Under the pieces are notes generated by a model. That model did not search any database. It had not been told where the DNA came from and was given only the letters and a program-made list of their open reading frames with translations. A stretch of DNA of 64,000 nucleotides from Metallyticus violacea (lineage: Eukaryota; Arthropoda; Insecta; Mantodea; Metallyticidae), in the NCBI GenBank assembly GCA_030762175.1, contig CM060831.1, positions 29,089,001 to 29,153,000 on the forward strand. The letters are read 5' to 3'. Made by a program: the position numbers and the translations under genes. Shown here one piece after another: positions 3,019 through 64,000 of this stretch. Within the stretch, counting starts at the first letter, position 1, and each line of letters opens with the position of its first letter.

Positions 3019-3152
3019 GTCAGCTGTATGGTCTTGAAAAATTTTGGGCATTTCTCAAATATTACAGGCATAGCTCAAAGCTGCATATAGATCCAAAACT
3101 GAAAGAATTTCTCTCAGGATATAATGACGTCAAGGATTTCCGTGTAGTTATG
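3019..3152 (+). CDS. larp1: La-related protein 1 (LARP1), DM15 exon
   Basis: This internal exon lies between a polypyrimidine/TATAG acceptor (AG at 3017-3018) and a GTAAGT donor starting at 3153. It encodes GQLYGLEKFWAFLKYYRHS, then IDPKLKEFLSGYNDVKDFRVVM. That is the end of the third DM15 (HEAT-like) repeat of LARP1 and matches the animal LARP1 motif LYGLEKFWAFLKY...IDPKL. In LARP1 the DM15 region binds the 5' cap and adjacent TOP motif of mRNAs, controlling translation of ribosomal-protein messages downstream of TORC1. The first two bases complete a codon begun in the preceding exon, which is off the window. The exon ends on a full codon. The La motif, RNA-binding region and the first DM15 repeats lie to the left and are not visible. 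Assignment is by sequence recognition and is strong. Confidence 0.92.
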
Positions 3153-6100: not shown

Positions 6101-6187
6101 GTAAAGGTTATTTATGCTGTAAACTTATCGAAATAATATTTCATAACTATGAAGTTTTATAATTTATCTATATGTCTTGTATTACAG
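3153..6187 (+). other. LARP1 intron
   Basis: GTAAGT donor at 3153 and TTGTATTACAG acceptor ending at 6187, phase 0. The intron is AT-rich and ~3.0 kb long. It contains a 60-bp imperfect tandem duplication (3592-3651 and 3652-about 3700) but no recognisable gene. Open frames inside it are short and do not resemble proteins. Confidence 0.85.
3592..3700. repeat. 60-bp imperfect tandem duplication
   Basis: CAGAGTTATTGAAGGTATAA at 3592 and CAGAGCTATTGAAGATATAT at 3652 begin two copies that share AAATTTGGGGGCAGAG further on. The second copy is incomplete. Confidence 0.7.
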
Positions 6188-6715
6188 CCAGGTGATGAAA
6201 ATGAATTGAAAGGAGGTTACAGAGGTACAATGTTTCACCCATACCCTGTTAAAAGACGCAACCGTAGTGTGTCTGAAAGCTACAGTATGGATGTGAGGCA
6301 GCAGCGTAACTGGGAAAGACATTCAGCATCTGTATATCATCAGAAACGTGTGCGTCGTCTTTCTGGTGGACCAGGCTCAACTAGTCCAGGACCTTCTTCA
6401 CGCTTGCGGGCCAACTCTTGTGGGTATGAACCAAGCAGTTCTATTTCTAAAGGTTCATCAGCTGCTTCCAGTAGTCAGGGAGGAAGTAAAGTGAGAGTTA
6501 ATTTTGATCTCAGAGAATGCAAGTCTGCTGAAGCAAGTACCAGTCACTCGTCTCAAAGCTCAAAAGGCAAGTCTGCTGAAGCAAAAAAGGCTTACAAAAA
6601 GAGGGAGGGATCAGTTGGCAAAGGCTCTTCAGATAAGCAGAAAGGTTCAGTAGGGTCTGGGGCAGAATGTGATAGTAAAACCATTGCTGCAGCAGCAGAG
6701 ACAAAAAAGGAGTGA
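6188..6715 (+). CDS. larp1: La-related protein 1 (LARP1), last coding exon
   Basis: The exon starts after TTACAG (6187) in phase 0, matching the donor at 3152. It reads PGDENELKGGYRGTMFHPYP, then a basic Ser-rich tail (KRRNRSVSESYS, KRVRRLSGGPGSTSPGPSSR), and ends in AAAAETKKE with TGA at 6713-6715. This is the disordered C-terminus that follows DM15 in LARP1. Such Arg/Ser tracts are typical phosphorylation-rich regions, but no site is proven here. The tail contains a short internal duplication (CKSAEAS.TSHSSQSS / GKSAEAKK). The open frame extends 39 bases upstream of the acceptor to an ATG at 6149, but that part is intron. No further coding exon is needed, because the frame closes well after the conserved DM15 end. 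Confidence 0.9.
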   Translation, partial: PGDENELKGGYRGTMFHPYPVKRRNRSVSESYSMDVRQQRNWERHSASVYHQKRVRRLSGGPGSTSPGPSSRLRANSCGYEPSSSISKGSSAASSSQGGSKVRVNFDLRECKSAEASTSHSSQSSKGKSAEAKKAYKKREGSVGKGSSDKQKGSVGSGAECDSKTIAAAAETKKE

Positions 6716-23129: not shown

Positions 23130-23652
23130 CAATCAAATGGAAGACTAGTTTCGGGAGCCATCGCTCCTATTGTCAGTTCCTGGTCAACTGCTGGCCTCGC
23201 TGTTTGTGGTAGATCGATTCATCTCTGGTGGAGGTTTAATGAGCTTTTGTATTAGTACATCACTTGGCAAGATTTCGAAATTAAAAACTTTCTCTTTATT
23301 CTTCCAAATATAGATGTTTTCCCAGACTGTTAAGTTCAGTTTTTCCTTTAATATTTTTAAGTAATTTGGGCTTTTTATTAATGTTATGTTATTCTTTCCA
23401 AAAGTGCCAAGCCACCGCCAATTTTTCTTCTTGTTTTTGGTTTATATTCCATGTTTCTTTTGGTCTTTCCAATATAAACTTTTTCATAATCATTACAGTT
23501 CATCTGATATATTCCTGATTTAGCTTCTTCTTGTTGGTTATCTTCTTTTTGTCTTGAGTCAAGAATATTTTTAATGGAATAATTATTTTTTGGAGCCAAA
23601 ACAACAATGTTGTATCTTTTAAAAATCTTTTGAAATTTATGAAAGGCTGTTT

Positions 23653-23686
<34 letters not shown>

Positions 23687-24236
23687 ATAGGAGTAAGTGT
23701 AGTGGTGTCTCTAATTTTCTTTTTATTCTTTGTTCTGTCTATTTTCTTGTGCACAACTTCTTGTTTGAAGCCATTTTCTATAGCTATATCCATTATATTA
23801 TTCGTTTCCAGTTCATATTCCTCTTTGTTCATTGTAACATTAACCAGTCTGTATGCAAGACTATTTAAAACTGCATGTTTTTGGGAAACTGGATTAAAAC
23901 TGTTATATTTAATGTAATTATCCGTGTGTGTAGGTTTTCTGTATATGCCAAAGTTTAGGTGATTTTCTTTTTTAATTATCTTAATATCCAAGAAAGGTAA
24001 CTCTTTATTGCATTCTCTCTCCATAGTGAATTTAACTGTTTTTTCCTGTAAGTTAAGTAACTTTAGTGCATCATCCAAGTGTCTTTCTGGTACTATTGCA
24101 AAAATATCAACATAGTGGTACCAAGTCTTAAATATCCAAGGGAAACTATTTACTATTCTAATTTCTAATGCACATTGCTTTTGCAATATGTGAAATAAAA
24201 GTAAAATTGGAAGAACTACATTTCTCATCCTTTGAT
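23130..24236 (-). mobile_element. Penelope-like element, 3' half (RT-linker-GIY-YIG)
   Basis: From 24236 leftward the minus strand reads MRNVVLPILLLF (motif like MGNPLSPILA), then QKQCALEI, WYHYVDIFAIVPERHLDDAL, VKFTMERECNKELPFLDIKI, NFGIYRKPTHTDNYIKYNS, and in the next frame GIYQMNCNDYEKVYIGKTKR. This is PLE reverse transcriptase palm, thumb, linker and the start of GIY-YIG. The YVDD catalytic motif reads YVD-I, having lost one Asp codon. A poly-T/A run at 23649-23682 interrupts the linker. At 23180-23140 the reverse strand has CTGACAATA, a GGAGC/GCTCC hairpin and CGAAAC, a hammerhead-like motif just downstream of the coding part. Confidence 0.9.
23649..23682. repeat. Poly-T tract inside PLE
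   Basis: About 34 consecutive T on the plus strand (poly-A on the element's own strand), interrupting the PLE linker frame. Confidence 0.95.
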
Positions 24237-24335
24237 GATTTTAAAAACTGGAAGCAAGACAATTGAGACAAACTTTGTAAACAATCGTGGTTCTTGCACT
24301 ACTTCTGACAATATTGTAAGGCATTATTATGAGTC

Positions 24336-44313: not shown

Positions 44314-45608
44314 CGAGGGTAGGTTCATAAGTTTCCGGCCTCGCCAATAAGGATTATAGCCTTTACAAATCCCTTATCTGGTGTCATACCTTATCTGTTA
44401 AGTAAATAATTACAGCTGTAACTTCGGCTCCATTGTGTTCAGTTGTTCAGATATAGTTGCATAAAGAAGTCTATGTGTAGAAGATTGTGACATGTTCAAA
44501 ATGGAGTTTCCAGCTGTTATTAAGTTTCTCACAAAAGAAGGACTTTCTGCAAATGAAATTAAACAGCGATTGGACGGTGTCTATGAGAAAGCATCTCCCT
44601 CATATTCTACCGAAAAAGAATGGGCCAAACTTTTTTCAAATGGATCGAAAAAGCATTGAAGACGAAAAGTGTGCAAGTCGACCCTTGGAGGTACTCACTC
44701 CTGAAAACTTTGCTCTTGTGGAAGGAGAAATTATGGAAGACCGGTGACTCAAAACTACAGAAATAGGAGCAAGGTTGAGCCTTTCTAAAACAACAGTCCT
44801 TCGAATTATTCGTGAACATTTAAACATGAATAAGGTTAGTGCAAGATGGGTACCTAGATTTCTTTCCTCAGTCGAAAAGCAGCAACGAGTCATTTGTTGT
44901 TAGGCATTTTTGGAGCTCTGTTGTGGCAATGAGAAAGAATTTCTGCAAACCATTGTTACAGGAGATGAAACTATGGTCCTCTACTATGATCTCTTGTCCA
45001 AAAGAGAATCAATGGAGTGGTGTAAATCTGGCGAAGCACCACCTCTGAAGGCCAAGGTCACTCAGTCAACCAAGAAGGTTATGGCCACAATCATTTGGGA
45101 TGGCGAAGGAATACTTTTCATTGACTTCAAGGAGAGGAACACCACAGTAAATGAGGAGTACTATGCTGGCCTACAGCACAGACTACTTGCTTCCATGAAA
45201 GAGAAAAGGCGAGGAAAGCTGAATGGTGATGGTGTGCGCCTTCTTCTTGACAACGCGCCTGTGCACAGCTCTTGTTGGAAAGGAAGCTGTGAAGAAATGC
45301 GGCTTCAAGGAGATCGACCATCCACCGTACAGCCCAGATCTACCTCCCAGAGAATATTTCCCCTTCTCAAAATTCAAGAAGGATCTTCCAGGAAGGAAAT
45401 TTAAGCATGACGGAAGTGATGGATGCTGTTTATGCCCATTTTGCAGACAAGACTTCTGACTACTTGGGGGGGGGGAGATTGAAATGTTAATTCAAAGATA
45501 TGAAAAGTGTATTGCAATAAAGGGTAACTACATTGAAAAATGAAATATAGTCTTTGTCTTTATCATACCTAAAAATGGTTAGACCAGAAACTTATGTACC
45601 TACCCTCG
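44314..45608 (+). mobile_element. mariner transposon, near-complete, frameshifted
   Basis: Terminal inverted repeats CGAGGGTAGGT(T/A)CATAAGTT start at 44314 and at 45608 (complement), flanked by TA at 44312-44313 and 45609-45610. The length of ~1.3 kb is normal for mariner. Transposase pieces occur in order: VLTPENFALVEGEIMEDR; TEIGARLSLSKTTVLRIIRE; LQTIVTGDETMVLYYDL (first catalytic Asp); ATIIWDGEGILFIDFKERNT; GDGVRLLLDNAPVHSS (second Asp). In the next frame comes DHPPYSPDLPPREYFPFSKF (third Asp). At least three frameshifts or stops break it, but all three catalytic Asp codons survive. Confidence 0.93.
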
Positions 45609-50060: not shown

Positions 50061-50070
50061 AATTCAAGTA

Positions 50071-51283
50071 CGAAGGGTGTTCAATAAAGAATTATTATTG
50101 TTTTTGACAACATACCTTTACTCAACCTCATAATTTTGATTATCTTTCTCAAAGTAGTCCCCTTTGGATGCAATGCACCTGTCCCAAGTTTCGTAACGTA
50201 AGTGCATGTGACATGACCTTGCAGAGTTTTCAGGACATAGCTGATGGTTTTTTTTTTTTGGGGGGGGGGGGTTCGTGATGAAAGAGATTTCCACACAGAG
50301 CTTTGCTGTTTGCTCTCAGGATCGAAACGAAGTAGCCAAGTTTCATCAACAGTGATTACCTTTGAAAGAAACTTCGCATCTTCCTGTAATATCATGTTCA
50401 ACTGCATGCAAATCTGCACGCGAACGCCCTTTCATTCGGGAATCAGTAGTCTTGGAACCCACCGTGCGCAAACGCGTCTCTTGTGCAACTTTTCAACTAC
50501 CAACATGTGGATGGCACACAGTGAAATTTTCAATATCTGAAAGTGTTCGTAATGTTATTTGACGATAATGATATCAGCGGTGTTAATGTTTTCTTCTTTA
50601 GAGCACAAACTGGAGCGTCGGGTCCAACTTTTTTTTTTATTGGTAGCCTCCCTTCTGTAAACATTTTATATCACCTTCGAGCTGTGCTATAAGGAAGAAC
50701 AAATTCTCTATAGGCCTCCTGTAACATTGGCTAGGCCTCGATTGAAAATTTGTTGAGACGAAAGCAGAATTTTTGAGCAGTATATTGTTCGTCGCATGTC
50801 ACATCATTTTGCCTTCGATTGTACTGAACATGTCTCAACTTGCACACCTCTCATAGGTGGAAACCGGAGTGACAACAATGAAACTAGCGCTGGTGTAAAT
50901 TACACTTAAATGAATGAATATCGTTTAACGCCCGTTTTTGCTACAGAGGCACCACAGGCGATGGACACTGATGATACATGAGATGAAATGATGTATTGGG
51001 AAAGGTTGTTTTTAAAGGAAGGAAACATTGCAGGCCCAAGTTTAGGGTACCTACCCGGCCTTTGACATTTATGAGGACTGAGGAAAACCTGGAAAATACC
51101 TCAGCCTGGGAGGTCGGTCCTAGCGGGATTCGAACCCCAGACCTCCCGCCCACGAGTCCGCGCCTTAACGACCTCGGCTACCGTGGCGATAATTACACTT
51201 AAGATACCAATATATCGTAAAGTTAAATTTTAACTTGAGAAATTATGCCTGTAAAATTATAATTCTTTATTGAACAACCCTCG
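50071..51283 (-). mobile_element. mariner transposon with internal deletion and nested SINE
   Basis: The ends CGAAGGGTGTTCAATAAAGA (50071) and, inverted from 51283, CGAGGGTTGTTCAATAAAGA are flanked by TA (50069-50070 and 51284-51285). The minus strand carries transposase pieces VQICMQLNMILQEDAKFLSK, VITVDETWLLRFDPESKQQS and SVWKSLSS, then, after a deletion, CIASKG(D)YF-like sequence near the C-terminus (LGTGALHPKGTTLRKI). The second and third catalytic Asp blocks are missing. A 281-bp family A SINE sits inside near the transposase start. Confidence 0.88.
50910..51190 (-). mobile_element. SINE family A nested in mariner, 12-bp target duplication
   Basis: The full element on the minus strand has its tRNA-like head at 51190-51110 (CCACGGTAGCCGAGGTCGTT, AAGGCGCGGACTCGTGGGCG, GGGGTTCGAATCCCGCTAGG) and its 3' end at 50911. 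Identical 12-base flanks AATTACACTTAA (50898-50909 and 51191-51202) show target-primed insertion into the mariner, dating the SINE as younger. The plus-strand 68-aa and minus-strand 70-aa frames here are SINE translations. Confidence 0.92.
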
Positions 51284-51285
51284 TA

Positions 51286-52340
51286 CCACGAAGCATTCGA
51301 CCCTAACTGTTAAAACGGAAGAAATGACATATCCTTCTTTAAGCTGTGCAATTACTTCATGTAAGTTCTCCAGCAAATGTTATTTTTTAAATGAAAGTAA
51401 TTATTCTTTGAGACAGGAGCGGCTTATTTAGGAGGTTACTGGTCAGCGTTTAATTTCCTAGTTTTACGATTAAAAAAAAACAGAAGGAACGAAACAACAA
51501 AACAATGTCTGCAGAGGGCTTCTATCTTGCCTCTGTCTGTTTGTATTTACGGTTATTATCTGTAGGGAACTTGGCTTGCAGTCGCAGTGTTAAACTTGTG
51601 GGGCGGGGGGAGTGAGAGGAAGAGGTAGAAGAAGTCTTTTGCTCATAAGATTCAATATGTGCATACATAACTATGCGTTCTCAAGAAAGTTTGCCGCGGT
51701 TTTTATATAGATTGATTGCTGTTGCGTTACAAAGTTAAATAAAGTATTTTAAAACACGTTTATATAAAGATAGTGAAACCGCACCTATGTTAATGGTAAC
51801 AGTCATTTTTAAATGTGGGAAAACGTTCAATTATTTCAAACAATATTACATTTGATTGATACATTTTGTTCTAAGGTAGACAGCCTGTAGAGCGTTCGTG
51901 CAGCGATAATCAATTGTTTTGTTAGTAGTAAGCCGCTGCTGAATGACAGATTTGTGCAATTTTCTGTGAATTTATGAAGTGCTTTATTTCGTTCTGCGTT
52001 AAAAGAAAATAAACCATCGGAAGATAACATTTGAAGTTAAAGAACTGAGTAGATAAACTCCAAGTATTAGTATAGGTCAAACTTGATTTCAAATCATGAG
52101 AAGTATATGATGTTTTTTGTAGAGACAGACTTCATCCTGCAGATTCAGCGATTTAATAAAAGGATCGTTAACAAGTTTACTGCCATGAAAACCAGGAGAA
52201 TTTTTTTTTTTTTTTTTTTTTTTTTAAATAGTGCATTACTACGATTTTTATTACATTCTCTCTCACTCTCTTTCTGATGCGTATGCACAGTCACGCAAGT
52301 ATGAGTGTTAATTCTAGTTATTTAGATTCCAGAACCCGTT
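51286..52340. other. Intergenic, downstream of the neuropeptide gene
   Basis: No gene seen. It contains a 25-base poly-T (about 52201-52225) and a CTCTCTCTCAC run. An AATAAA on the minus strand at 52252-52247 is an alternative poly-A signal for the neuropeptide gene. Confidence 0.45.
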
Positions 52341-52344
52341 TTTT

Positions 52345-52350
52345 TTTATT
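52345..52350 (-). terminator. Candidate poly-A signal of tryptopyrokinin gene
   Basis: This is the first AATAAA on the minus strand after the stop codon at 52762, about 410 bases downstream. No transcript evidence is available, so it is only a candidate. Confidence 0.35.
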
Positions 52351-52761
52351 TGCAGCTATTGATCAGGCATTACCTTAGTCAAGATGCAAGAGGTATTATA
52401 ATGCTAAAATAGTAATATAGAGCTAAGATTAAGAATCATAGTAAAGGATTTGCTTCAGATAATAGTTTATATTAGCAATGCATCAACCAATCCTTTTCCA
52501 AGTAAATAAATGTTCCACGTGAAATTAAAATATATTCAGAATGCCAAAAATTGAAATTAGATATTATCTATAAACAGTAACTTAAGGCCCAGTTGAGTCA
52601 ATGGGTTCACTATAGCTTACATTAAAAATGTTCCGTTTAGATTTCTTTAACTGGTTTTCTTAATGGTGTGCTTTTTTAAAAAATAACATATTAATTGCAC
52701 ACTAAAATCATACAATTATGAATAAAGAAGATTTGTTTCTCACTCCAAGAACAGAACCAAA

Positions 52762-53882
52762 TCAGAGTGAAACTTTTGAAACGTCACGTTCAGCTGCCTC
52801 ATTCTCACGTCGTCCAAGACGAGGTCCAAACCAGAGTGCTGATGTTGGAACTTTAGGTTCAGCTACCTCACTGTCACGTCGTCCAAGACGAGGTCCAAAC
52901 CAGAGTGCCGATGTTGCAACTTTAGGTTCAGCTACCTCACTGTCACGTCGTCCAAGACGAGGTCCAAACCAGAATGCCGATGTTGGAACTTTAGGTTCAG
53001 CTACCTCACTGTCACGTCGTCCAAGACGAGGTCCAAACCAGAGTGCCGATGTTGCAACTTTAGGTTCAGCTGCCTCACTGTCACGTCGTCCAAGACGAGG
53101 TCCAAACCAGAGTGCTGATGTTGGAACTTTAGGTTCAGCTACCTCACTGTCACGTCGTCCAAGACGAGGTCCAAACCAGAGTGCCGATGTTGCAACTTTA
53201 GGTTCAGCTACCTCACTGTCACGTCGTCCAAGACGAGGTCCAAACCAAAGTGCCGATGTTGGAACTTTAGGTTCAGCTACCTCACTGTCACGTCGTCCAA
53301 GACGAGGTCCAAACCAGAGTGCCGATGTTGCAACTTTAGGTTCAGCTGCCTCACTGTCACGTCGTCCAAGACGAGGTCCAAACCAGAGTGCTGATGTTGC
53401 AACTTTAGGTTCAGCTGCCTCAATCTCACGTCGTCCAAGACGAGGTCCAAACCAGAGTGCTGATGTTGCAACTTTAGGTTCAGCTGCCTCACTGTCACGT
53501 CGTCCAAGACGAGGTCCAAACCAGAGTGCTGATGTTGGAACTTTAGGTTCAGCTGCCTCAATCTCACGTCGTCCAAGACGAGGTCCAAACCAGAGTGCCG
53601 ATGTTGGAACTTTAGGTTCAGCTACCTCACTGTCACGTCGTCCAAGACGAGGTCCAAACCAGAGTGCCGATGTTGGAACTTTAGGTTCAGCTACCTCACT
53701 GTCACGTCGTCCAAGACGAGGTCCAAACCAGAGTGCCGATGTTGCAACTTTAGGTTCAGCTACCTCACTCTCACGTCGTCCAAGACCAGGACCGAACCAC
53801 ACTGAAGTTGTTAAAACATCAGAATTTCTGTTCTTTATGGATAGCTTATTTTCATAAGAAGTCGGCTGTATCGTTTTCTCTC
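52762..53882 (-). CDS. Tryptopyrokinin precursor, peptide-array exon
   Basis: The minus strand has an acceptor TTATATTTTCAG (AG at 53884-53883), then an open frame to TGA at 52764-52762. It reads EKTIQPTSYENKLSIKNRNS, then DVLTTSVWFGPGLGRR, then fourteen copies of a 23-residue unit such as DSEVAEPKVPTSALWFGPRL followed by GRR, and a tail ENEAAERDVSKVSL. WFGPRL-Gly-Arg-Arg is the textbook form of a tryptopyrokinin (FXPRLamide family): the dibasic site is cut, the Arg residues are trimmed and Gly becomes the C-terminal amide. Unit starts vary (DSEV, DSEA, EIEA, ESEV; VPTS or VATS; one AFWFGPRL), but the active end is invariant in all fourteen. The first copy is WFGPGL. No periviscerokinin-type peptide is present, so this is not the CAPA gene. 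The peptides would act on pyrokinin-type G-protein-coupled receptors. The exon starts with GA, completing a Gly codon begun at 57033. Confidence 0.93.
52766..53800. repeat. 69-bp tandem array, about 15 units
   Basis: A 69-bp unit without a single indel: one diverged edge unit (52766-52834), then fourteen near-identical units beginning at 52835. Differences among units fall at a few fixed sites (GCT/GCC, GGA/GCA, ACC/GCC, CTGTCA/ATCTCA). Units 2-5 (52835-53110) and 6-9 (53111-53386) show the same order of variants, revealing a 276-bp higher-order repeat. It codes on the minus strand. Confidence 0.97.
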
Positions 53883-56800
53883 CTGAAAATATAATAATAA
53901 AATAGCTGCACTGAATATTTTCTCCAATGTTCCATTTAATTGCTTTTTTATTTTAAGATATACAAAATTCTTTGTTCCTACATGCTTTACAATGATAAAC
54001 AGTCCATTAGCATTTAAAGCCATGGTTTTCATGAAATATTGAAACATGTTGTGCTATATCGAAAAATAAAGTGAATGCTCAGTGATTGCTTTATGTTCAT
54101 CTGACTTCCAGAGCCATTAAGTGAAGAACTTTCCTGTGCATGCCTGTTTACATCTAATCTCGTCAAGGCACCTAACTGAGGCAAAAACTAAGGAGAGGAC
54201 ACATTGCTGCAGGAATGACACACAAGTTTTTGATAAAGCAATACGAAATGGACTTAAATTAGATTTAACAACGAAAATCTCATAAAACCCCTCGATCAAC
54301 CTGTTGCCATAAAAAAGACAACATAGAATTGTCATTTGCGTAACTGGCGCAATGGATTGCTCACAGCAGATGAATCTCTTTTTTTTTTTTTTTTTGCTTA
54401 ATACAGTGCTATGGACCTTTACATGCATATTGTCGCCTTGGTGAGCATTATAAAGAAGCAGTGATGCAGGAAAGGGACAGATATGCCGCACATCAGTCAC
54501 AGTGTGGGGTAATATCACTATTGAGAACCGGACAGAACTTGTGGCAGCCAGGCACCGACTTCATGGCTCTCTGACAATGCCAACACTACTACAGCTATGA
54601 GCGCACGGCCAGTTGGTGCTGTGTTGCCAACAAAAGGTATTGGAATTCAGTTCTATAGCTTCAGAAATTGCAATTTTCGAAACAAAATATGCAAACTTTA
54701 ATGTCTATGGACGAATAACATATTAATATTTTATATTTTTATTTTATAATCATCATAATCAATGCAGTTACAATTATAACTATTGTTATTAAACTAATAA
54801 GAAAATTCACTTTTAAAAGATCTGTACAAACTATTCCATCTAATAAATGCAAATAAAAGTGAATAAATTCTCTTCGCACACAAAGGGTACACCATTAAAC
54901 AATTGTATAGAACAGGCTGAGACATTGGATGTCGAAATTAAGGAAAAGTCTACGTTATGATAAGTATGCCATGAAAACGGCTCTTTGTAATGTTGTAATA
55001 AAATATTTTCATGTTAAACTTATAGCATTGTGACTATAATAATGTACGTTATAACACAGGAGCCGAGTTTTCTAAATCCTCTCGGGGATACTCAAGTTAA
55101 CAACATTATTGAGTACACATGGGACATACAGTACTTAAATATTAAAATTATTTTTCACAAGTAGTTAATAAAGATATATTAGGTTCTGTATACTTCGACC
55201 TTAATTAATGTATTTTTTCATACTTTAATATAATGTAGTTACATATCTCCGTCTGCAAGTGGATTGTTTCTTAAGTTATACATTATATTATTACCACATA
55301 TTATGGACAGCATACTCGACTTTCTGCAGCTTGTGTTGTAACAAACGAAATAGCTGTATGTAAAATATGCATGCCCTTTTGTTATTGACGCATATAATAA
55401 CAGTGCTAATCGATACAATCAAGGACTATAATATGAAATTATCACTTCATGTAATACGTTCTTTTTGCTTTGAGTATTAAGTCAAATTCACTTACAATAG
55501 ACAGGGAATTTTCCCCGGTGACAAGTTTCTCGGGTTCCCTAACACTGGTGTAGTCGGCTCTATGAGTGCTAAATTAAATTACTCCATATTAAAAATACGA
55601 GTTTATTTTCCATGATTCGTCCTTATATATAAACTTTGTCTCCCCGGTCCTTTTTCTGTACACACACGCCAATCACTCTTGAAATTAATTCTTGACGTTT
55701 TCCTGAAATAATTACGTCCTCTTTTCTATAATCCTAGTAGGATAACGCACGTTTCACTGCAGTTGGCATTTACAGAGAAATAGAGGGAAAACAGAATAAA
55801 CGATGAATTATGATCCGCGGTCCGCGTAAATTAAAATATGATTGAGGGATTATACGTTTTAAAAATAATAAGTCAAAGTAAGTGCCATTTATTGTTAAAA
55901 TAAAATAATTTCATAATTCCATACTACCATAATACAACTAAAATAGCGAAATAATATATATTAAGATGTCTAAATATTGGGCTTCAGGTTCTATTTATAC
56001 CCTAGAAGAGAGCAGGCTAAGAACCGGATCGAGCCCAAGGCTAGCGTAAACAATAATAAAAACTACATGAAAGACATCCTTCACTTCAAGAGAATTACTT
56101 AAAAAATCACTATGGAGCATTAGATCGTATTATTGGTGATCGGCTATTACGTCACAACAGCGACTAGTTAAAATAGTTTGTAAATAAAAACTAACACATA
56201 CGAGCCAACACACAAATGCAGGCTATGCTCAGTGTTACCGCTTAATAGACGCTTCGCCATTGCCATTAAACTGAAACACAAGAGGAGAAGATGCCTGAGT
56301 ATAATGTTTTCCACAGTGTGACAGTTATAAAATAAGTCAAGCAGTATTGCCGCATCTACACCATCCCTCCCTTAATACTCATAAAAATTCCCCAAAAGAA
56401 GGTTTTGGCTTAAGCAGTCTCTTATCTGCCCCGGCGTCTGGCATGGAAGCCAGGGCTGGAACTCCAGCGTCGGGATGTACTGTTCAGAAACAATGTTAGG
56501 GACCCTGTCTAAGTCCATGCGGATCCTGGCCATTCTATATGTCCCTCACCTCATCCCTTCCTCTCGCAGGTGCCCCTACTGGGAGGTAGGCACAGTCGGC
56601 CAGCAGTTAAGCTTAACTGAAGAACCGAAATATGCTCCTCCGTCCTTGACACTCCAGTGCAGTTCAATTCAGTGTCCTGATAAGAATTAAGACATGCTGG
56701 AGCTGGACGCACATTGCTATGAAGGCAGATAAATTTTTACCAAGAACGTGATAGAGTCGAAGAGAAAAAAGAAAACTATGGAAAAGTATATGAGAGCATA

Positions 56801-57032
56801 CTGGGCTGCGTTTACGATGTTTCCAGAGGCAAGGAAATGAACAGCTTTTTCTCACTTATGTAATAAAAGAAGCTGAGCAAAAATAAACCTATGGAGTCGT
56901 AATTAAAAACTAATAGGTACTTAATTTAAATTTCCGAAGTACCGCTGACACATTTGATTGCTAAACCGTGTTTGAATAGTTAGTACCTGCTGTTCCTCCA
57001 CATAATCACATGTAAGTTAACAAGAAACTCAC
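53883..57032 (-). other. Intron of the tryptopyrokinin gene
   Basis: Donor GTGAGT begins at 57032 and the pyrimidine-rich acceptor TTTATTATTATATTTTCAG ends at 53883, read on the minus strand. It is phase 1 (G|GA). At ~3.15 kb it is AT-rich. A weak Tc1-like scrap lies near 54480-54610, and a GC-richer, unidentified stretch lies at 56420-56640. I cannot exclude a small extra exon, but direct joining keeps the frame. Confidence 0.8.
54480..54610 (+). mobile_element. Possible Tc1-like transposase scrap
   Basis: The plus strand reads VTVWGNITIENRTELVAARH, then RLHGSLT, resembling the (V)WGGI...RT.LV...G.L(T/N) segment of Tc1/mariner-type transposases. It is short and isolated, so low confidence. 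Confidence 0.35.
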
Positions 57033-57114
57033 CATGGATGAAGGTTAGTAGGAGAAGAACCGCAGTGCCACGTACCAGAGGCCACTGCATAATGTCATCT
57101 GTGTACTGCTCCAT
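57033..57114 (-). CDS. Tryptopyrokinin precursor, signal-peptide exon
   Basis: The minus strand reads MEQYTDDIMQWPLVRGTAVL, then LLLTFIH, followed by G and the donor GTGAGT (57032 down). The hydrophobic core AVLLLLTFI with a preceding Arg, and a likely cleavage after HG, make a classic secretory signal peptide. The final G joins GA of the exon at 53882 to give Gly and continue into EKTIQP, an exact phase-1 match. Starting at the inner ATG (57090-57088, A at -3) gives a compact 20-residue signal ending at the joined Gly. That start also fits the nearby TATA box better than the outer ATG at 57114, whose -3 base is C. Total precursor: 392 residues from the inner ATG or 400 from the outer. Function, secretion through the neuroendocrine pathway, is inferred from the encoded peptides. 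Confidence 0.85.
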
Positions 57115-57124
57115 GCGGGTTGAT

Positions 57125-57133
57125 CCTTTTATA
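57125..57133 (-). promoter_or_regulatory. TATA box of tryptopyrokinin gene
   Basis: TATAAAAGG on the minus strand at 57133-57125. A transcription start 26-31 bases downstream would fall at about 57107-57102, where GCAGTAC resembles the arthropod initiator (TCAGT). This places the outer ATG (57114) upstream of the start and favours the ATG at 57090. Inference from sequence only. Confidence 0.6.
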
Positions 57134-57659
57134 CACAGGTGTGACAATTATTTCTTCCTCAGTGAAGAATAACTGCAGCGCCCCAGGCTTCTTTTTTTCC
57201 ATCAACTTAACGCCTGCAACATTCCTGATAGCGTTCGCAAGAAAAAGTAAAACATTTCTTAGCGCCATATGGTAGCCCGCGGACTCCAGGGTTCACGAAA
57301 CCAATTTAGAGGATTCATTTGCTCATAAAAACAGCTCTTTAAAGCGCATTCAGCTCTTCGATAATATCCCGAAGAAAGAGCTTTGAAACATTTTATTCCA
57401 CTATAAAGGCAGTAAATGTTGATTTAAAATTGGAAGGAATTGATTTCTCCCATGACATTTAGATTCCGTAGTTGCAAGCAACGTCATAATTATATATTAT
57501 TACATTGTTATAAATAAATATTAACATAAATTAACTTTTTTATGTTGCAACTTAAGGGGTTTACCAATAAAGTTTGAAAATTGTTTTTCTCCTCATTACA
57601 AGTGAAGAAACGGCGGTAAAACAATTTTTCACGAGAAGAATAGATCTCATGTGATTAGT

Positions 57660-57683
57660 GAAAAAAAAAAAAAAAAAAAAAAA
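57660..57683. repeat. Poly-A tract
   Basis: About 23 A, a few hundred bases upstream of the neuropeptide gene. Confidence 0.9.
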
Positions 57684-57814
57684 TGGGAAACTTGTACGCC
57701 CATGCGTCTCAGTGCAGGATGCCAGAGCAGTTTGCTATTTGGCTGCCTAAAATGAAGTCGCTTCGTAACAAGCAGTACACTGCTCTAAACTCTTGCTTCC
57801 GTCTGCAGAATTTC

Positions 57815-58350
57815 GATATGGATGTTATAGCAAGCTCGTGACCATGATGTTCCGACACAGTCAACCGCACTTAGGTGGTTCAAAGAGTTTAAGGAGGACC
57901 GTGTTTCAACAACAAAGAAGGGCGGTGCAAGTGCTCCAACCATTGTAGTGAACGAGACTATGAACACAGCTGCTGTCATTGTTTGGGAAGATCGACGAAT
58001 AACAGTGATTAGCATAGCAGACATGTTACAGGTTTCCCAATCAATGTGCACGATCTCTTACACATGACACCTGAACAGAAGATGGTGCGAGTGAATTGGT
58101 CAGGAGCTTCAGCGTCTGGAGCAGAGCATGGCATACGTGAATTCCATATTAAAGAGACGAGACTTGATTTCACCATTATGATCCCGCAAGCAAGTAGGCG
58201 AGTTCAATCTGCAAATCGTCTGGTTCTCCGACACAAAGAAGGCCAAGTTTGTTCAGTCACCAAGAAAGGTTTTGGTGATTTCGTTCTACGACTGTCGTGG
58301 AATGGTTTATCAACATTAATTCAGACACGTCAAGCTAAATGTATACAACT
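57815..58350 (+). mobile_element. mariner-like transposase remnant
   Basis: The plus strand reads ALRWFKEFKEDRVSTTKKGG, then WEDRRITVISIADMLQVSQS (helix-turn-helix region), MTPEQKMVRVNW (as in PRMLTPEQK), and in another frame SDTKKAKFVQSPRKVLVISF, then YDCRGMVYQH (as in SPRPKK....KVMLVVFWD.RGMV). Order and motifs are those of a mariner, but pieces are missing and frameshifted. No terminal repeats were found. Confidence 0.65.
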
Positions 58351-58429
58351 CAATAGAAGTTACTTTGAAAAGGACATAATCTTAATCCTGCCTAATGTAC
58401 TTCGTAGGTAAACAAAGAATTCTGTTTTT

Positions 58430-61400
58430 ATTGATTCGCTCTCATCTGCAGTTACTACGCACATTCCTTCGGAATTCGCTAAAAACGTGTGAAGCTGACA
58501 TCTGAAAGGGGGAGTTCCATAGCTCTTAGCTAATTGAAAACCACTGATATAAGACCATCCTTCAAACACGCCATGTCTGACTGAAAGTACGGATAATGAA
58601 TATTTACTTACTGCGAATGAATTTATCAAATTCTCCATATAATAAATACAAAATAAAATACAGTATAGCTTACTCAGTTAAAATGTATATTACACTTCTC
58701 TCCTAATGTAAGTGGAGCCACAGAGTTTTCAGATTTCACTCCTAATTACTTATACCGATGCCCTCCCCTCTTCAGAAAATAAGGGCTATTACCCAGCCTA
58801 TCACATAAGCAATTTTGAATGTATTAATTACTAATCTTTCAACTAATATTTTACCTCTATTTAGTTGCAAGACGGTCTTAATTAAGAAATGCCCTGGCCA
58901 ATTATTTTCTATTGTGTTTCATCTAATTCTTTAAATTTTAATAGATAATGGTCTAATGAAAGGAACAATTTAATAAACATTGTTTGAGTCACTGCATTAA
59001 TCTTGAAAATAATTAGGCTTTACCCGGTCTTTCACTTTTACAGAGCTTATATTTTATTCAGTCTGTCTCTAGCAATTACTCTGCACAAGTTTATGTTTTA
59101 AACTATTTGAGGACAAATAATTTTTGTTTGGATTTCCAGCACAATGAACGTAACAATAAAATGTTAATATTTTATTCGGAAAACAAGTTGCAAGAACACC
59201 ATCGGATTTGAATGCAAGTGTCAGTAACCATAAAATAAAAATATCTGTCAACAAAGTAAAATTGTTAGGTAAAATACAACAGAAAAACTTGTGGTTCAAA
59301 TTAAAGTATTAAGGAAGCTTATAGAGAAAATTTAGAATTCACCATTTCTTACATTAGACGTTGACCAAAGAAATGAATTGAAAGCTTTAACTTCCAAATG
59401 TGCTAGAAGGGGGGTTTCCAAACCTTCTCTACTCGCGAACGTCCAGTAATAAAGTTTTGAGCCGAGCAAACCCCTTATTAATATATAAAATGTTTAACAA
59501 CTGAAGCAGTAATGGCCGGTTTCAACCCCTGCATAATTTGCATTATCAGAATTATTAATTTAATGAATTATATAATTAATTCTGCTCATCACATTTGCTC
59601 TGCTGTATATTAAATTAAATATTTAATGACATTGTTGAACGTTCAACGGAAATACATTCATGTTAAATGTGTTATGTGTAAATAATCAAAAATAATGCGA
59701 AAATGTATATTATTCTATACTCTATATTTTAGTTAGCTAGAATTGTATGAAATAGCCGTGCGTCTCCACCGTTAATATTTTGGAGAAACTTGTAACGAAG
59801 GAAAGTAGGGTATCTTCAAGGTTCTTCTTTTGTGCACAGGCCAGAGGCTTTGCTTTGTTTGTTTAAAAGGACAACATTGTAAAGAAACTGTCGCGTGGGG
59901 AAAGCGTGTGTGTAGAAAAGCCCGTATCATTTAAAGAGTGGACAAAACGTCCGGGATTTAAAAGGCAGCGAATGGACAGACTTTTGCGTAAGATTTATTT
60001 TAAGAGCAAATCAGAAAGACCGTCTGTAAAGCCCCGTAGCCAATAAGAGTAGGGGATTCAAAGAAAAGTTCTCGAAACTTCTATTAGGAAATTTTGAAAG
60101 ATTACTGTAGCGTCTCAACAGCTAGAATTTAAAAGTATAAAGAGACAATTTGAGGTCTCAGACACACTTGATGTAAGGAAGTAACTTGACATTTAGATTC
60201 GGAAGAGGCAGAACTCGTAACGTAGTTTGAGTTTACATTCAGAGGATGTAAGGATGCGTCATTCTCAAGTATAAAGTACTGCGTGAATAGCGACTACTTT
60301 CAGTCAATGTTAATGATAAATTGTAGTGTTTGAGTGAACTTTCGTGTATAGAAAACAATATTAATGAGAATATGGTTTAGACAACGGTCATACGCAAGAG
60401 TAGAGAATTTACAGTACGCGAACAAAAGAGAAGTTCAATTTTGCGGTTACACAGTTGCACGTGACTTTCGATATCGGTGTGAACAATTCAGTTGCTAAGA
60501 TAAATGTGAGGTAACAATCTGACGTTCCCCCTTTTATTAACATGAGGTGATGCACGTAGTCAGTGAGAAATCAATCAAGGTTATAATTTAATTCATGAAG
60601 CGGCTTCTACCTTCCAGCTATCCACTCCCTTCTTCCCCTTGATATAAATATCAGGAATCCCAGATCACATGAAATGTGATTTCTACTTGTAACTAGGAGT
60701 AACTAAATACTAGCTAGAGCAGAGCCATCTTCCAGACAATAATCGTCAGTGGAGGGAAGACATCGCAGCAGCTGACCCATGCATTAGCGGCTCCCACTAC
60801 ATAACCCATTCCCAATTAATTAATACAAAGGTCAATCCATTAAAACCTATTTCCGTTAAATAACCATACAAACAACCAATCAACCCTTCCCACGCTAATT
60901 TAAAAAGTTGTTATACGAACTTAAGTTAGCCTAACGTTGCTGTAGTTACGGTAAATAGGTCTACCTTAGAATTTCCATCCACAAATGATGCAACAACACT
61001 TAAAATACTGAAACTACATAAGTTCAAATAATTATACATTTATTTTACATTTAAAACATTAAACCAGAAATTAAACACTTAAGTTAATAATGCAATAGCA
61101 TAATTTTGCTATTTTAAAGTCATATTTTTATATTTCACACACTTTAATCTAACTAGACGCTGAGAATTATTTTTTTGGTATTATTGAAATAGTATACGTA
61201 ATGACAGAATTCTATGTGGGCTTAAGCTACACATTTATATTTATCAATATTATAAACTAAACAGCGCATCCTTATATTTTGCTTTAAATGGCACAGAGTT
61301 CTGTACTCAGGAACCATAGAAGTTGAAAGTGATCAAGATTTTGTTTAACTTGCCTGGCACGCATCTTCGTACTCATAATCAAAGTCTTCTCCTTATGGAC

Positions 61401-62210
61401 TATGGAAACTACTAACCTGTCACTACATACCTAAACATATGCCTTATTTCAATGAACAGAAAACACATGTATCTAATTTATGGTGGCCACAGTTCGATAT
61501 GTTAGGCGCAAATTGTAATAATGATATCATTACAATAACAAAACTCAAAATCCGGCACTAGAGCATACAGATACACCTTGCAAGATGCGGTGTACCTCCA
61601 GGTGGCTCGTGAACCACAGTTTGAGAAGCATTGTGCTAGATGGATTTCTTTAAAAAAATCAATAAGTAAGAATGCGAAATTAAGGTTTTATAAAACGATG
61701 TCTACCCATAGGGACAATCAAGCTGATATGTGGTCTGTCTGAGTCATGGAAGCGTTTCATTGCTTTAACCCGTGTCATGAACATACACAGAGCAGATGTT
61801 TGAAAAGTTCACCGCCCATCTTAAAACAGGGCATAGTTTTATTATAAATTCATATAGTTCAGTTATATTTTCCAGGAAAATTTTTGGGTATGCGCCTGAG
61901 TTTAGTTTTTTAGCCCATTTGGCCAGCAGAGATTCTCAAACTGTTATCCGCAAACCGCTAGAGATTTTCAAGATCCTCCCAGGGATCCACGAACCATTAG
62001 ACTTTTGATAAAAACAGCTATTCTTAAGTGTACAGATAGAACCAATGTATTATGAGAAAACGAAAGATATTACAAATTTACGATGCATTTATTTTATGGA
62101 GGTAAAATTAATTAGAGTCAAATTGAAGGTGACTATTTTTACTGCAAATAAGTAAACTGAAAACGTGGATCAGGGTAGAACACTCATAATATGTAGTCAT
62201 AATACAGAGC
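58430..62210. other. Intergenic, no gene seen
   Basis: Long stretch upstream of the neuropeptide gene, AT-rich to mixed. No protein-like frame, tRNA or repeat family recognised. CpGs are frequent around 59750-60550. It could hold unidentified regulatory DNA. Confidence 0.4.
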
Positions 62211-62220
62211 TCTGGTATTA

Positions 62221-62460
62221 ATACCGCCATGGGTGGTCGAGGTCGTTAAGGCGCGGACTCGTGAGTTCTGGGAGTAGTAGTTCTGGGGTTCGATTTCCAC
62301 CAGGACCGTCCTCCCTGGCTGATGTTTTTCTTTTTTCAGGCTTTCCTCAGCCCTTACACTATTGGGATTTGCTTGGCACTGTGAGATCCCGTCGGGGAGG
62401 GGGGGGGGTTTATGTGAAGCTGTCCCTGGTTCCCCATCTAATTGAGATAATAAATATTTG
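62221..62460 (+). mobile_element. SINE family A, diverged copy
   Basis: The head ACCGCCATGGGTGGTCGAGG, TCGTTAAGGCGCGGACTCGT, then CTGGGGTTCGATTTCCACCA and GGACCGTCCTCCCTGGCTGA matches family A, with a short insertion (TTCTGGGAGTAGTAG) between the A- and B-box regions. The body diverges after CCTCAGCCCTTACA; a G run occurs at about 62397-62408. Confidence 0.75.
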
Positions 62461-62569
62461 TAATTTTAAATCAATGATTCTGTGATTTCTTACAGGTAGG
62501 CTGTGCTTTCTGTATATAAGAAATTTCGATGACAAAATTCATGTATGTAGAATTAAGATTGTACAGTGT

Positions 62570-62896
62570 TTAAGACTGAGCTAAATGTCTATAATGTGTA
62601 CTTTTAGTAATATCTGAAAATAATATGTAATATAGCAAAGGGGAAAGATGGACTTGAATCTCACCCTGAACACGCAAGGCAAGGTTTGGAAAAGTCAGAC
62701 AATGCAAGTTAATCCCTTCTGGTATGCAGCAGGCAAAGAATGCTCTCCCCTCTGGCGTAGAAGCCAGCCACTTTTCGACATATGTCCATTCGCAGGTCAT
62801 TGACAGTAACGTGTAACATGTGTTTGAAGTGAGCTGATTGACGAATAGCGGAGCTTGTGGCTTCATCAAAATTGGGTAGCGAATAGGAAGAACCAT
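62570..62896 (-). other. Unidentified 108-aa open frame
   Basis: The minus-strand frame MVLPIRYPILMKPQAPLFVN ... WTYVEKWLASTPEGRAFFAC is longer than most chance frames here and of balanced composition. I do not recognise it; it may be translated repeat sequence. No start context or splice evidence supports a gene. Confidence 0.2.
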
Positions 62897-63025
62897 GAGT
62901 GACGTAGGGATCAGTCTATGAGCATGGTGAAAACAGAATTGGCTCGAAAACCCTGCTTCGCTTTTCTTGTGTTAGCGTCAGTTCTTACAGAGTATATAAG
63001 AAATAGATTTTGCCTCAAAAGGGTC

Positions 63026-63310
63026 GGTCCTGGTGGTGTAGTGGTAACCTACTTGCCCTCTAAACCCAAGATCGCAGGTTCGATCCCGGCCAGGACCGAT
63101 GGATTTTTTCGGGCGTAAAAATCCCAAGTGTAGCTTCCTTCGGAAGGGAAGTAAAGCCGTGGGTCTCTGTCGTACATTTACGACACAAAAAAGAACCTCA
63201 AGTCTGAAAGAAGAGGCCTCTGAGCAAAATTTGTCGGCCGTTTCACGCCCTGGATTGAATGGAACGCTGGTGATCTGAGATGTTAAAGAGCGTCCGCAAA
63301 TAAACCAAAT
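63026..63310 (+). mobile_element. SINE family D with well-kept tRNA head
   Basis: The head 63026-63097 has a 7-bp acceptor pairing (GGTCCTG/CAGGACC), an A-box (TGGTGTAGTGGTAACC) and a B-box (GGTTCGATCCC). The body contains GTAAAAATCCCAAGTGTAGC, TTCCTTCGGAAGGGAAGTAA, AGCCGTGGGTC, then AAGAACCTCAAGTCTGAAAG and TTAAAGAGCGTCCGCAAATA. A second body copy follows at 63857. The tRNA-like head is a SINE promoter, not a stand-alone tRNA gene. Confidence 0.85.
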
Positions 63311-63856
63311 CAAGCCTCAAAAGAGGCCAGTCTCAGAATTCTCCGGACCAAGATAGTGCTGCTGCTCGGGCAGTTAGAGGAAGAACGTCCTAAGTCCGAG
63401 ATACAAGATCCGGCATCAACCAGGCTCGACAATCAATAAACGCGCGAGCTACATATAGCATTGTGTTGCGTTAAATACCGCCGAAGTAGCACTTTCTTCA
63501 TATTAGACACCATTTGGATGAACGCAACCAAAATTGCACGTTTGCCAAATTTCGTTGCCAGTGATCCGGCGTGAGACGCGAGTTCATCTGATTATTCATG
63601 TTTGGCAGAATAAACAACCTATGCAACTAAATCACGAGGCGTTATTTATCAGCGCATTCCTTACCAAATTCCTATTCACTCAGCCTTGGCTAGCTTACAG
63701 CTGCCAGGAATCAGCGGAAAACCCTAGAGAGAGAGTCTCGTGGAAACGAATTGGTAGTCTACAGCAGCCTGGCGAAATCTGCGATCGGCGGACTTAAATT
63801 AATTAACACAACTACCATACAGCCCAATATCCTCCCCCATCAACAATCCTTCGGCT

Positions 63857-64000
63857 GTAAAAATCCTAAGTATGGCTTCCTTCGAAAGAGAAGTAAAGCC
63901 GTGGGTCCCCGAAGGAAAAAGAACCTCAAGCCTGAAAGAAGAGACCTCTGAGCAAAATTTATCTGCCATTTCACGTCCTGAATGGGACGTTGATGACTTG
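63857..64000 (+). mobile_element. SINE family D, headless copy cut by window end
   Basis: GTAAAAATCCTAAGTATGGC, TTCCTTCGAAAGAGAAGTAA, AGCCGTGGGTCCC, then AAGAACCTCAAGCCTGAAAG and AGACCTCTGAGCAAAATTTA match 63114-63260. The tRNA head is absent. Confidence 0.8.

What the first reader, a model, noticed from the sequence alone, without database searches (positions are those of the whole stretch)
52762..57114. Dedicated tryptopyrokinin precursor with 14 WFGPRLamide copies, on the strand opposite the obvious ORF
Seen: minus-strand signal-peptide exon, phase-matched splice sites, then fifteen units, fourteen ending WFGPRLGRR. Known: FXPRLamide peptides with a Trp before Phe are tryptopyrokinins, usually found as one copy in the CAPA precursor; some polyneopterans have a separate gene. 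Inferred: this is such a gene with an unusually large, homogenised array. Naive ORF calling picks the plus strand (379 aa) and misses it.
Basis: partly seen in the sequence, partly recalled or inferred. Interest (0 to 1): 0.95.

Follow-up and report, generated by a model that had tools for sequence, protein, structure and literature searches.

The report
Fourteen-copy insect tryptopyrokinin hormone gene
An insect chromosome, likely a praying mantis's, carries a gene predicted to make one long hormone precursor that would be cut into fourteen nearly identical copies of a known neuropeptide (tryptopyrokinin); dedicated genes of this kind are already described in termites, cockroaches, locusts, crickets, stick insects and mantises.

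Summary
On the minus strand an 82-nt exon (57114-57033) encodes a hydrophobic signal-like peptide; a 3,150-nt GT-AG intron joins it in frame (phase 1) to exon 2 (53882-52762), which carries one WFGPGLGRR and fourteen WFGPRLGRR units of 69 nt: seven different 20-residue peptides. Exon 1 is the only exon of its kind found on that strand of the window; shuffles give 0.1. A decayed sixteenth unit follows, whose Trp codon is the stop. No second such array was found in the 2.32-Gb genome. The interpretation also holds: a dedicated tryptopyrokinin precursor, a known polyneopteran gene kind. Locusta DH5 has 14 peptides and Blattella 23 (PMC6591537), so the size is not exceptional. New here: the only AKH matched is QVNFTPNWG, reported from Mantodea, so the host is likely a mantis, an order reported to have mostly lost pyrokinin receptors while some species keep this gene (PMC11874938). 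My one answered receptor search found no pyrokinin-receptor-like exon, but nothing I recognised as the periviscerokinin receptor either, so loss is not shown. New member of a known kind; transcription, processing and function untested.

The parts
57126..57133 (-). TATA-box-like TATAAAAG upstream of exon 1
   Evidence: only TATAAA in 57080-57300 on this strand; function inferred
57033..57114 (-). Coding exon 1: MEQYTDDIMQWPLVRGTAVLLLLTFIHG, signal peptide; in-frame alternative start Met9 at 57090 (MQWPLVRGTAVLLLLTFIHG)
   Evidence: hydropathy peak 2.43 over 11 residues; signal-peptide function predicted
53883..57032 (-). Intron, 3,150 nt, GTGAGT...TTTTCAG, phase 1
   Evidence: not confirmed by RNA
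52762..53882 (-). Coding exon 2: N-terminal spacer peptide and the tandem peptide array, stop TGA at 52764-52762
53773..53841 (-). Unit U0, most diverged in-frame unit: ...SVWFGPGLGRR (Arg to Gly in the core, probably inactive)
   Evidence: 26 of 69 bases differ from the consensus, 3 of 27 in WFGPRLGRR, 2 of those 3 synonymous
52807..53772 (-). Units U1-U14: fourteen 69-nt units, each ending WFGPRLGRR; seven different 20-residue peptides
   Evidence: the 27 nt coding WFGPRLGRR are invariant in 14 of 14
52738..52806 (-). Decayed unit U15: ENEAAERDVSKVSL then stop at the Trp codon, followed by FGSVLG
   Evidence: 47 of 69 bases match the unit consensus; the 21-nt TTTGG... end matches 14 of 21, and the best of all other positions on the minus strand outside the array is 13 of 21 (52,740 positions in 1-52761, 10,098 in 53883-64000)
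52345..52350 (-). AATAAA, possible polyadenylation signal 412 nt past the stop codon (another at 52252)
   Evidence: chance not excluded in AT-rich DNA
52706..53857 (+). Antisense open frame of 383 aa (379 from ATG); taken as a by-product of a 69-nt period divisible by 3
   Evidence: one repeat-summed Pfam match (SPAR, no stretch alone)

Best explanation
This is a predicted two-exon tryptopyrokinin precursor gene on the minus strand, whose second exon carries fifteen tandem 69-base units, fourteen of them ending WFGPRLGRR, and its product would likely be secreted and cut into fourteen amidated WFGPRL peptides. Mechanism, step by step. Transcription and splicing of the 3,150-nt intron (inferred from splice sites and frame). 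Entry into the secretory pathway by the exon-1 signal peptide (predicted). Prohormone-convertase cleavage after each Arg-Arg, trimming of RR, and conversion of the Gly to a C-terminal amide (established chemistry for GRR sites; inferred here). The result would be seven peptide variants that differ only in the N-terminal part, [M+H]+ 2144.1 to 2232.1, so one precursor delivers many doses of one ligand. In related insects tryptopyrokinins come mainly from two labial cells of the suboesophageal ganglion and act on a pyrokinin-1 receptor that is strong in salivary gland (PMC11874938); that site and role are assumed here, not tested. If the animal is a mantis, that receptor may be gone and the target may be the periviscerokinin receptor, as that paper suggests. 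The copies were probably kept alike by unequal exchange or gene conversion, with older diverged copies left at both ends (inferred).
For: Spliced frame of 401 codons with canonical junctions and phase match. Only signal-like phase-1 exon found on this strand in 64 kb, 0.1 expected from shuffles. Core WFGPRLGRR invariant in 14 of 14 units, all seven variable sites outside it (by simple placement (42/69)^7 = 0.03, own arithmetic). In U0, 2 of the 3 core changes are synonymous in the minus frame. Nearest proteins are tryptopyrokinin-type precursors: Zootermopsis LOC110827992 34% over 48%, Locusta DH2 30% over 85%, Locusta tryptoPK1 36% over 74%. Pfam PBAN 98.2 bits, repeat-summed. Single locus in the genome at the sensitivity used. 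AKH QVNFTPNWG, a peptide reported from Mantodea.
Against: No RNA or peptide evidence. Because units are nearly identical, the open array is not fifteen independent observations. Changes inside the 14 units are not depleted for amino-acid changes (5 of 7 sites nonsynonymous), so selection is visible only in the core, and weakly. Pfam's PBAN hit has no stretch that passes alone, and the antisense frame also passes a Pfam cut-off in the same repeat-summed way (SPAR, 40.2 against 27). The one answered receptor search found no pyrokinin-receptor-like exon, so ligand action is uncertain.
Confidence: 0.92

Rival explanations
1. The gene is a recently silenced relic: still open because the array was homogenised, but no longer expressed, as in one mantis (Hymenopus) where the gene is broken.
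For: If the genome is a mantis's, the gene is being lost repeatedly there (PMC11874938, passages). The end copies U0 and U15 are degenerate. No pyrokinin-receptor-like exon was found.
Against: No frameshift or early stop in 401 codons, canonical splice sites, TATA-like element and invariant core in 14 of 14 units. A few mutated copies also occur in mantis precursors that are called intact (PMC11874938, figure 4 legend).
Confidence: 0.15
2. The plus-strand 379-aa ORF is the real gene and the minus-strand peptides are a coincidence.
For: It has an ATG and is open over the whole array. Its translation passes one Pfam cut-off, SPAR (small regulatory polypeptide of amino acid response), 40.2 bits against 27.
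Against: With a 69-nt period a frame open in one unit stays open in like units. The SPAR match has no stretch that passes alone, so it is probably a sum over repeats. The minus frame gives a convertase-ready WFGPRLGRR array, a phase-matched signal exon and precursor relatives.
Confidence: 0.01
3. The copy number is an assembly artefact: a collapsed or expanded tandem array.
For: Near-identical 69-nt repeats are hard for short reads. Units 7, 9, 10 are identical to 11, 13, 14.
Against: A 172-Mb contig and 310 contigs for 2.32 Gb suggest a long-read assembly (inference). The 966-nt block is far shorter than a long read, and most neighbouring units carry different variants.
Confidence: 0.05

Closest known systems
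Zootermopsis nevadensis tryptopyrokinin precursor (LOC110827992, P0005)
   Same: Dedicated precursor with repeated WFGPRLGRR
   Different: 4 perfect WFGPRLG copies against 14; units of 29 residues with a second dibasic site; plus a non-Trp FTPRL peptide near its C-terminus; 34% identity over 48% of the query
Locusta migratoria tryptoPK / DH1-DH5 precursors (P0004, P0130; PMC6591537)
   Same: Dedicated multi-copy precursors; DH5 is said to hold 14 peptides
   Different: Most frequent ends WFGPRI and WFGPRV; copies irregularly spaced in P0004; five genes said to have no introns; here one gene found, with a 3.15-kb intron after the signal peptide
Mantodea tryptopyrokinin precursors (Metallyticus, Deroplatys; PMC11874938, figure 4 legend)
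   Same: Very repetitive precursor with a large majority of perfect copies and a few mutated ones; likely the same order
   Different: Sequences are only in the figure, which is not held, so orthology and identity could not be checked
Insect pyrokinin/PBAN-type genes (e.g. Periplaneta P0146, Timema P0194)
   Same: Also encode a WFGPRL peptide, once in each of these two
   Different: They carry several other FXPRL peptides beside it; this precursor has none

Membership tests
Polyneopteran dedicated tryptopyrokinin gene | Multiple WFGPRL(G) peptides flanked by processing sites | tested here: met
   14 WFGPRLGRR plus 1 WFGPGLGRR
Polyneopteran dedicated tryptopyrokinin gene | No periviscerokinin (FPRV) and few or no ordinary pyrokinins in the precursor | tested here: met
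   The 400-residue translation holds no FPRV and no FXPRL without a preceding Trp
Polyneopteran dedicated tryptopyrokinin gene | Signal peptide for secretion | tested here: met
   Exon 1 hydrophobic core, unique on the strand; hydropathy only, no SignalP
Polyneopteran dedicated tryptopyrokinin gene | Sequence relatives are such precursors | tested here: met
   9 hits at E<=1e-3 of 7,996 scored candidates; the three with an organism are Locusta DH2, Zootermopsis LOC110827992 and Diploptera FXPRL-amide, the other six have no useful name; 9 of 9 carry PF05874
Polyneopteran dedicated tryptopyrokinin gene | Host belongs to Polyneoptera | tested here: inconclusive
   AKH QVNFTPNWG as in Mantodea but also some froghoppers and leaf beetles; LARP1 tail best match Timema, 43%; no corazonin match
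Polyneopteran dedicated tryptopyrokinin gene | Expression in suboesophageal ganglion neuroendocrine cells | not testable with these tools
   no RNA data held
Working tryptopyrokinin signalling | Pyrokinin-1 type receptor in the same genome | tested here: inconclusive
   TM2-TM4 query: 6 matches at E<=1e-5 of 85 scored candidates, best 37%, none pyrokinin-receptor-like by eye and none that I recognised as the periviscerokinin receptor; a TM6-TM7 query did not complete

The most novel reading that the evidence does not exclude
In a praying mantis whose pyrokinin receptors are gone, an intact fourteen-copy tryptopyrokinin gene has been kept and homogenised: an orphaned hormone that has moved to the periviscerokinin receptor, with the large array making up for low affinity.
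Probability: 0.25. Interest if true: 0.6.

Novelty: new member of a known kind. Interest (0 to 1): 0.38.

Why it matters
It adds a chromosome-placed gene model with exact exon borders for a gene that ATG-based annotation would miss, because exon 2 has no Met and the antisense frame has one. If the host is a mantis, it gives a testable case of a hormone kept while its known receptor is being lost in the order, with seven exact peptide masses to look for and one receptor to assay.

Tried and rejected
Plus-strand gene: rejected (see rivals), although its translation passes a Pfam cut-off (SPAR, no stretch alone). A regular higher-order repeat of 4 units was suspected because units 7, 9, 10 equal 11, 13, 14, but a lag test against 5,000 shuffles gives no excess similarity at lag 4 (38.5% of shuffles as low), and lag 3 is more different than almost all shuffles; I claim only homogenisation. 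Rfam on the window at gathering thresholds: 0 matches to 4,227 families. Pfam PF20716 (ATPTG10-like, 30.1 bits against 25, no stretch alone) on the minus frame is taken as a repeat artefact. Corazonin pattern for order assignment: no match in 2.32 Gb, unexplained; an intron inside the peptide or a variant could do it. Stick-insect, cricket and cockroach AKH forms as I recall them would have matched the AKH pattern and did not appear. Paper searches. A gene with this unit was not seen in the passages read, but figures and supplements are not held, so I make no claim that it is unpublished. Redeker 2017 and Liessem 2018 were seen only as citations. PMC7179676 was seen as outline, abstract and one passage; PMC12604039 as passages (it reports no tryptopyrokinin precursor in the Rhyparobia transcriptome). 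In the two precursor searches of the protein set nothing close to identical was listed (9 hits at E<=1e-3 of 7,996 scored; 112 at E<=10 of 7,993 scored).
Full report
1. The observation. The minus strand of 57114-52762 reads as a two-exon gene. Exon 1 (57114-57033, 82 nt) encodes MEQYTDDIMQWPLVRGTAVLLLLTFIHG. The donor is G|GTGAGT, the acceptor TTTTCAG|GAG, the intron 3,150 nt, the phase 1. Exon 2 (53882-52762, 1,121 nt) runs to TGA, giving 400 residues. The count is exact: one WFGPGLGRR and fourteen WFGPRLGRR with a 69-nt period. The fourteen peptides between GRR sites are seven different 20-mers, present 5, 3, 2, 1, 1, 1 and 1 times.

2. More than chance. The repeat itself is not in doubt. 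The risky part is exon 1, found by eye. I scanned the window for ATG exons with a hydrophobic core ending at GTRAGT. On the minus strand there is one such donor in phase 1, this one, and none in phases 0 and 2. The plus strand has 2, 1 and 0 in phases 0, 1 and 2. Mono-nucleotide shuffles of the minus strand give 0.1 in phase 1 (2 of 20 shuffles with one). A TATAAAAG stands at 57133-57126. A start site at the usual distance of about 30 nt (recalled) would fall downstream of the first ATG, so translation may begin at Met9 (57090), which also gives the cleaner signal peptide MQWPLVRGTAVLLLLTFIHG. This is inference.

3. Which strand codes. The 27 nt for WFGPRLGRR are invariant in 14 of 14 units. 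All seven variable sites lie in the other 42 nt; random placement would do that about 3% of the time (own arithmetic). Five of the seven change an amino acid, so the spacer shows no constraint. In the diverged unit U0, two of three core changes are silent in the minus frame, and the third turns Arg into Gly, which should abolish activity (the need for Arg is recalled). The antisense 383-aa frame is expected from a period divisible by three. Exon 2 has no Met, which is why ATG-based calling prefers the antisense frame. Pfam does not settle the strand: the minus frame scores 98.2 bits for PBAN and the plus frame 40.2 for SPAR. Both are above cut-off, and neither has a stretch that passes alone.

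4. After U14 comes a sixteenth, decayed unit (52806-52738). It matches the unit consensus at 47 of 69 bases; its Trp codon TGG reads TGA and is the gene's stop, and FGSVLG follows it. Its 21-nt end scores 14 of 21; the best of the other 62,838 positions on the minus strand outside the array scores 13. So the array has worn copies at both ends and uniform copies in the middle, the usual picture for arrays kept alike by unequal exchange or conversion (inference). A regular four-unit duplication was tested and not supported.

5. In the genome. The window is part of a 172-Mb contig of a 2.32-Gb assembly. The exact 23-mer core occurs 14 times, 14 of 14 here. A 170-residue form of the precursor gives seven matches at E<=10 from 12 scored candidates; six are this gene and one is a stretch with 17% identity and two stops. 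So one such gene is found at this sensitivity, against three to five reported in Locusta; a strongly diverged sister could be missed. Searches for the sister capa and pyrokinin genes did not complete.

6. Relatives. In the protein collection 9 proteins reach E<=1e-3 of 7,996 scored. They include Locusta DH2, Zootermopsis LOC110827992 and Diploptera FXPRL-amide; six carry no useful name. They hold 2 to 8 perfect WFGPR[LIV]G copies. A shorter query adds Locusta tryptoPK1 and many PBAN/capa precursors at weaker scores. None listed is close to identical.

7. Literature (passages read). [quoted passage not shown] PMC4237046 describes them as newly found genes in a termite and a locust. PMC6591537 counts 44 peptides over five Locusta genes (DH1-DH5: 5, 8, 11, 6 and 14), 23 in Blattella, 8 in a cricket and 6 in Zootermopsis, and reports that injected peptides and RNAi change egg diapause in Locusta under short photoperiod. 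PMC9853942 reviews the same genes. PMC11874938 describes mantis precursors with many copies, a few mutated, and reports that mantises lack the pyrokinin receptors except for pyrokinin-1 receptor sequences in two of 52 species. The gene kind and the multi-copy design are therefore known.

8. The host. A degenerate AKH pattern matches once in the genome, QVNFTPNWG, with a hydrophobic leader in front and GKR reading on. That peptide, Emppe-AKH, is reported from Empusa pennata and six further mantises, and also from some froghoppers and leaf beetles (PMC10926376, PMC3253644, passages). With a dedicated tryptopyrokinin gene, a mantis is the likeliest host (my estimate 0.75). Against a firm call: no corazonin match, and the LARP1 tail in this window is nearest to Timema among the proteins listed, at 43% only.

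9. The receptor question. In this genome it gives 6 matches at E<=1e-5 of 85 scored candidates. The best is 37% identical and looks like a TRH-type receptor by eye (recalled). The call counts one TAG in it, at the upstream edge of a 116-residue open stretch. The rest look like other class-A receptors. That fits receptor loss in mantises, but I recognised no periviscerokinin receptor either, which mantises are reported to keep, so the search or introns may be at fault. Loss is not shown. The second half of this test did not complete.

10. How it would work. Shown: the sequence, the frame, the units, and one copy at the sensitivity used. Predicted: splicing, secretion, cleavage at RR, amidation from Gly, seven peptides. 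Assumed from relatives: release from suboesophageal cells, action on a pyrokinin-1 receptor, effects on salivary gland or feeding. If a mantis, the periviscerokinin receptor is the alternative target proposed in PMC11874938.

11. Verdict. The gene is a new member of a known kind, possibly even one of the mantis genes already drawn in PMC11874938, which I could not compare. Interest is moderate, and rises if ligand retention without receptor is confirmed.

Noticed in passing
window about 3019-3152 and 6187-6715, plus strand: Last two coding exons of a LARP1 (La-related protein 1) gene; LARP1_HEAT 37.5 bits against a cut-off of 27, best protein match Timema bartmani 43% over 98%.
   Followed up: partly
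window 44904-45404, plus strand: Mariner-type transposase fragment (Pfam Transposase_1, 64.1 bits).
   Followed up: no
window 50068-51286: 32-nt inverted repeats, 91% complementary, 1,155 nt apart, enclosing broken frames with a transposase-like stretch by eye: probably an old mariner-like element about 1.5 kb past the stop codon of the peptide gene.
   Followed up: partly
window 23500-24240, minus strand: Open frame of 246 aa that looks like a Penelope-type reverse transcriptase by eye (recalled); no Pfam match.
   Followed up: no
L024 (G000:C13:121483123, plus strand): AKH gene exon with hydrophobic leader, QVNFTPNWGKR and the start of the AKH-associated peptide; the only match of the AKH pattern in the genome.
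   Followed up: yes
whole genome G000: A 33-base degenerate corazonin pattern has no match; loss, a variant or an intron in the peptide are open.
   Followed up: no
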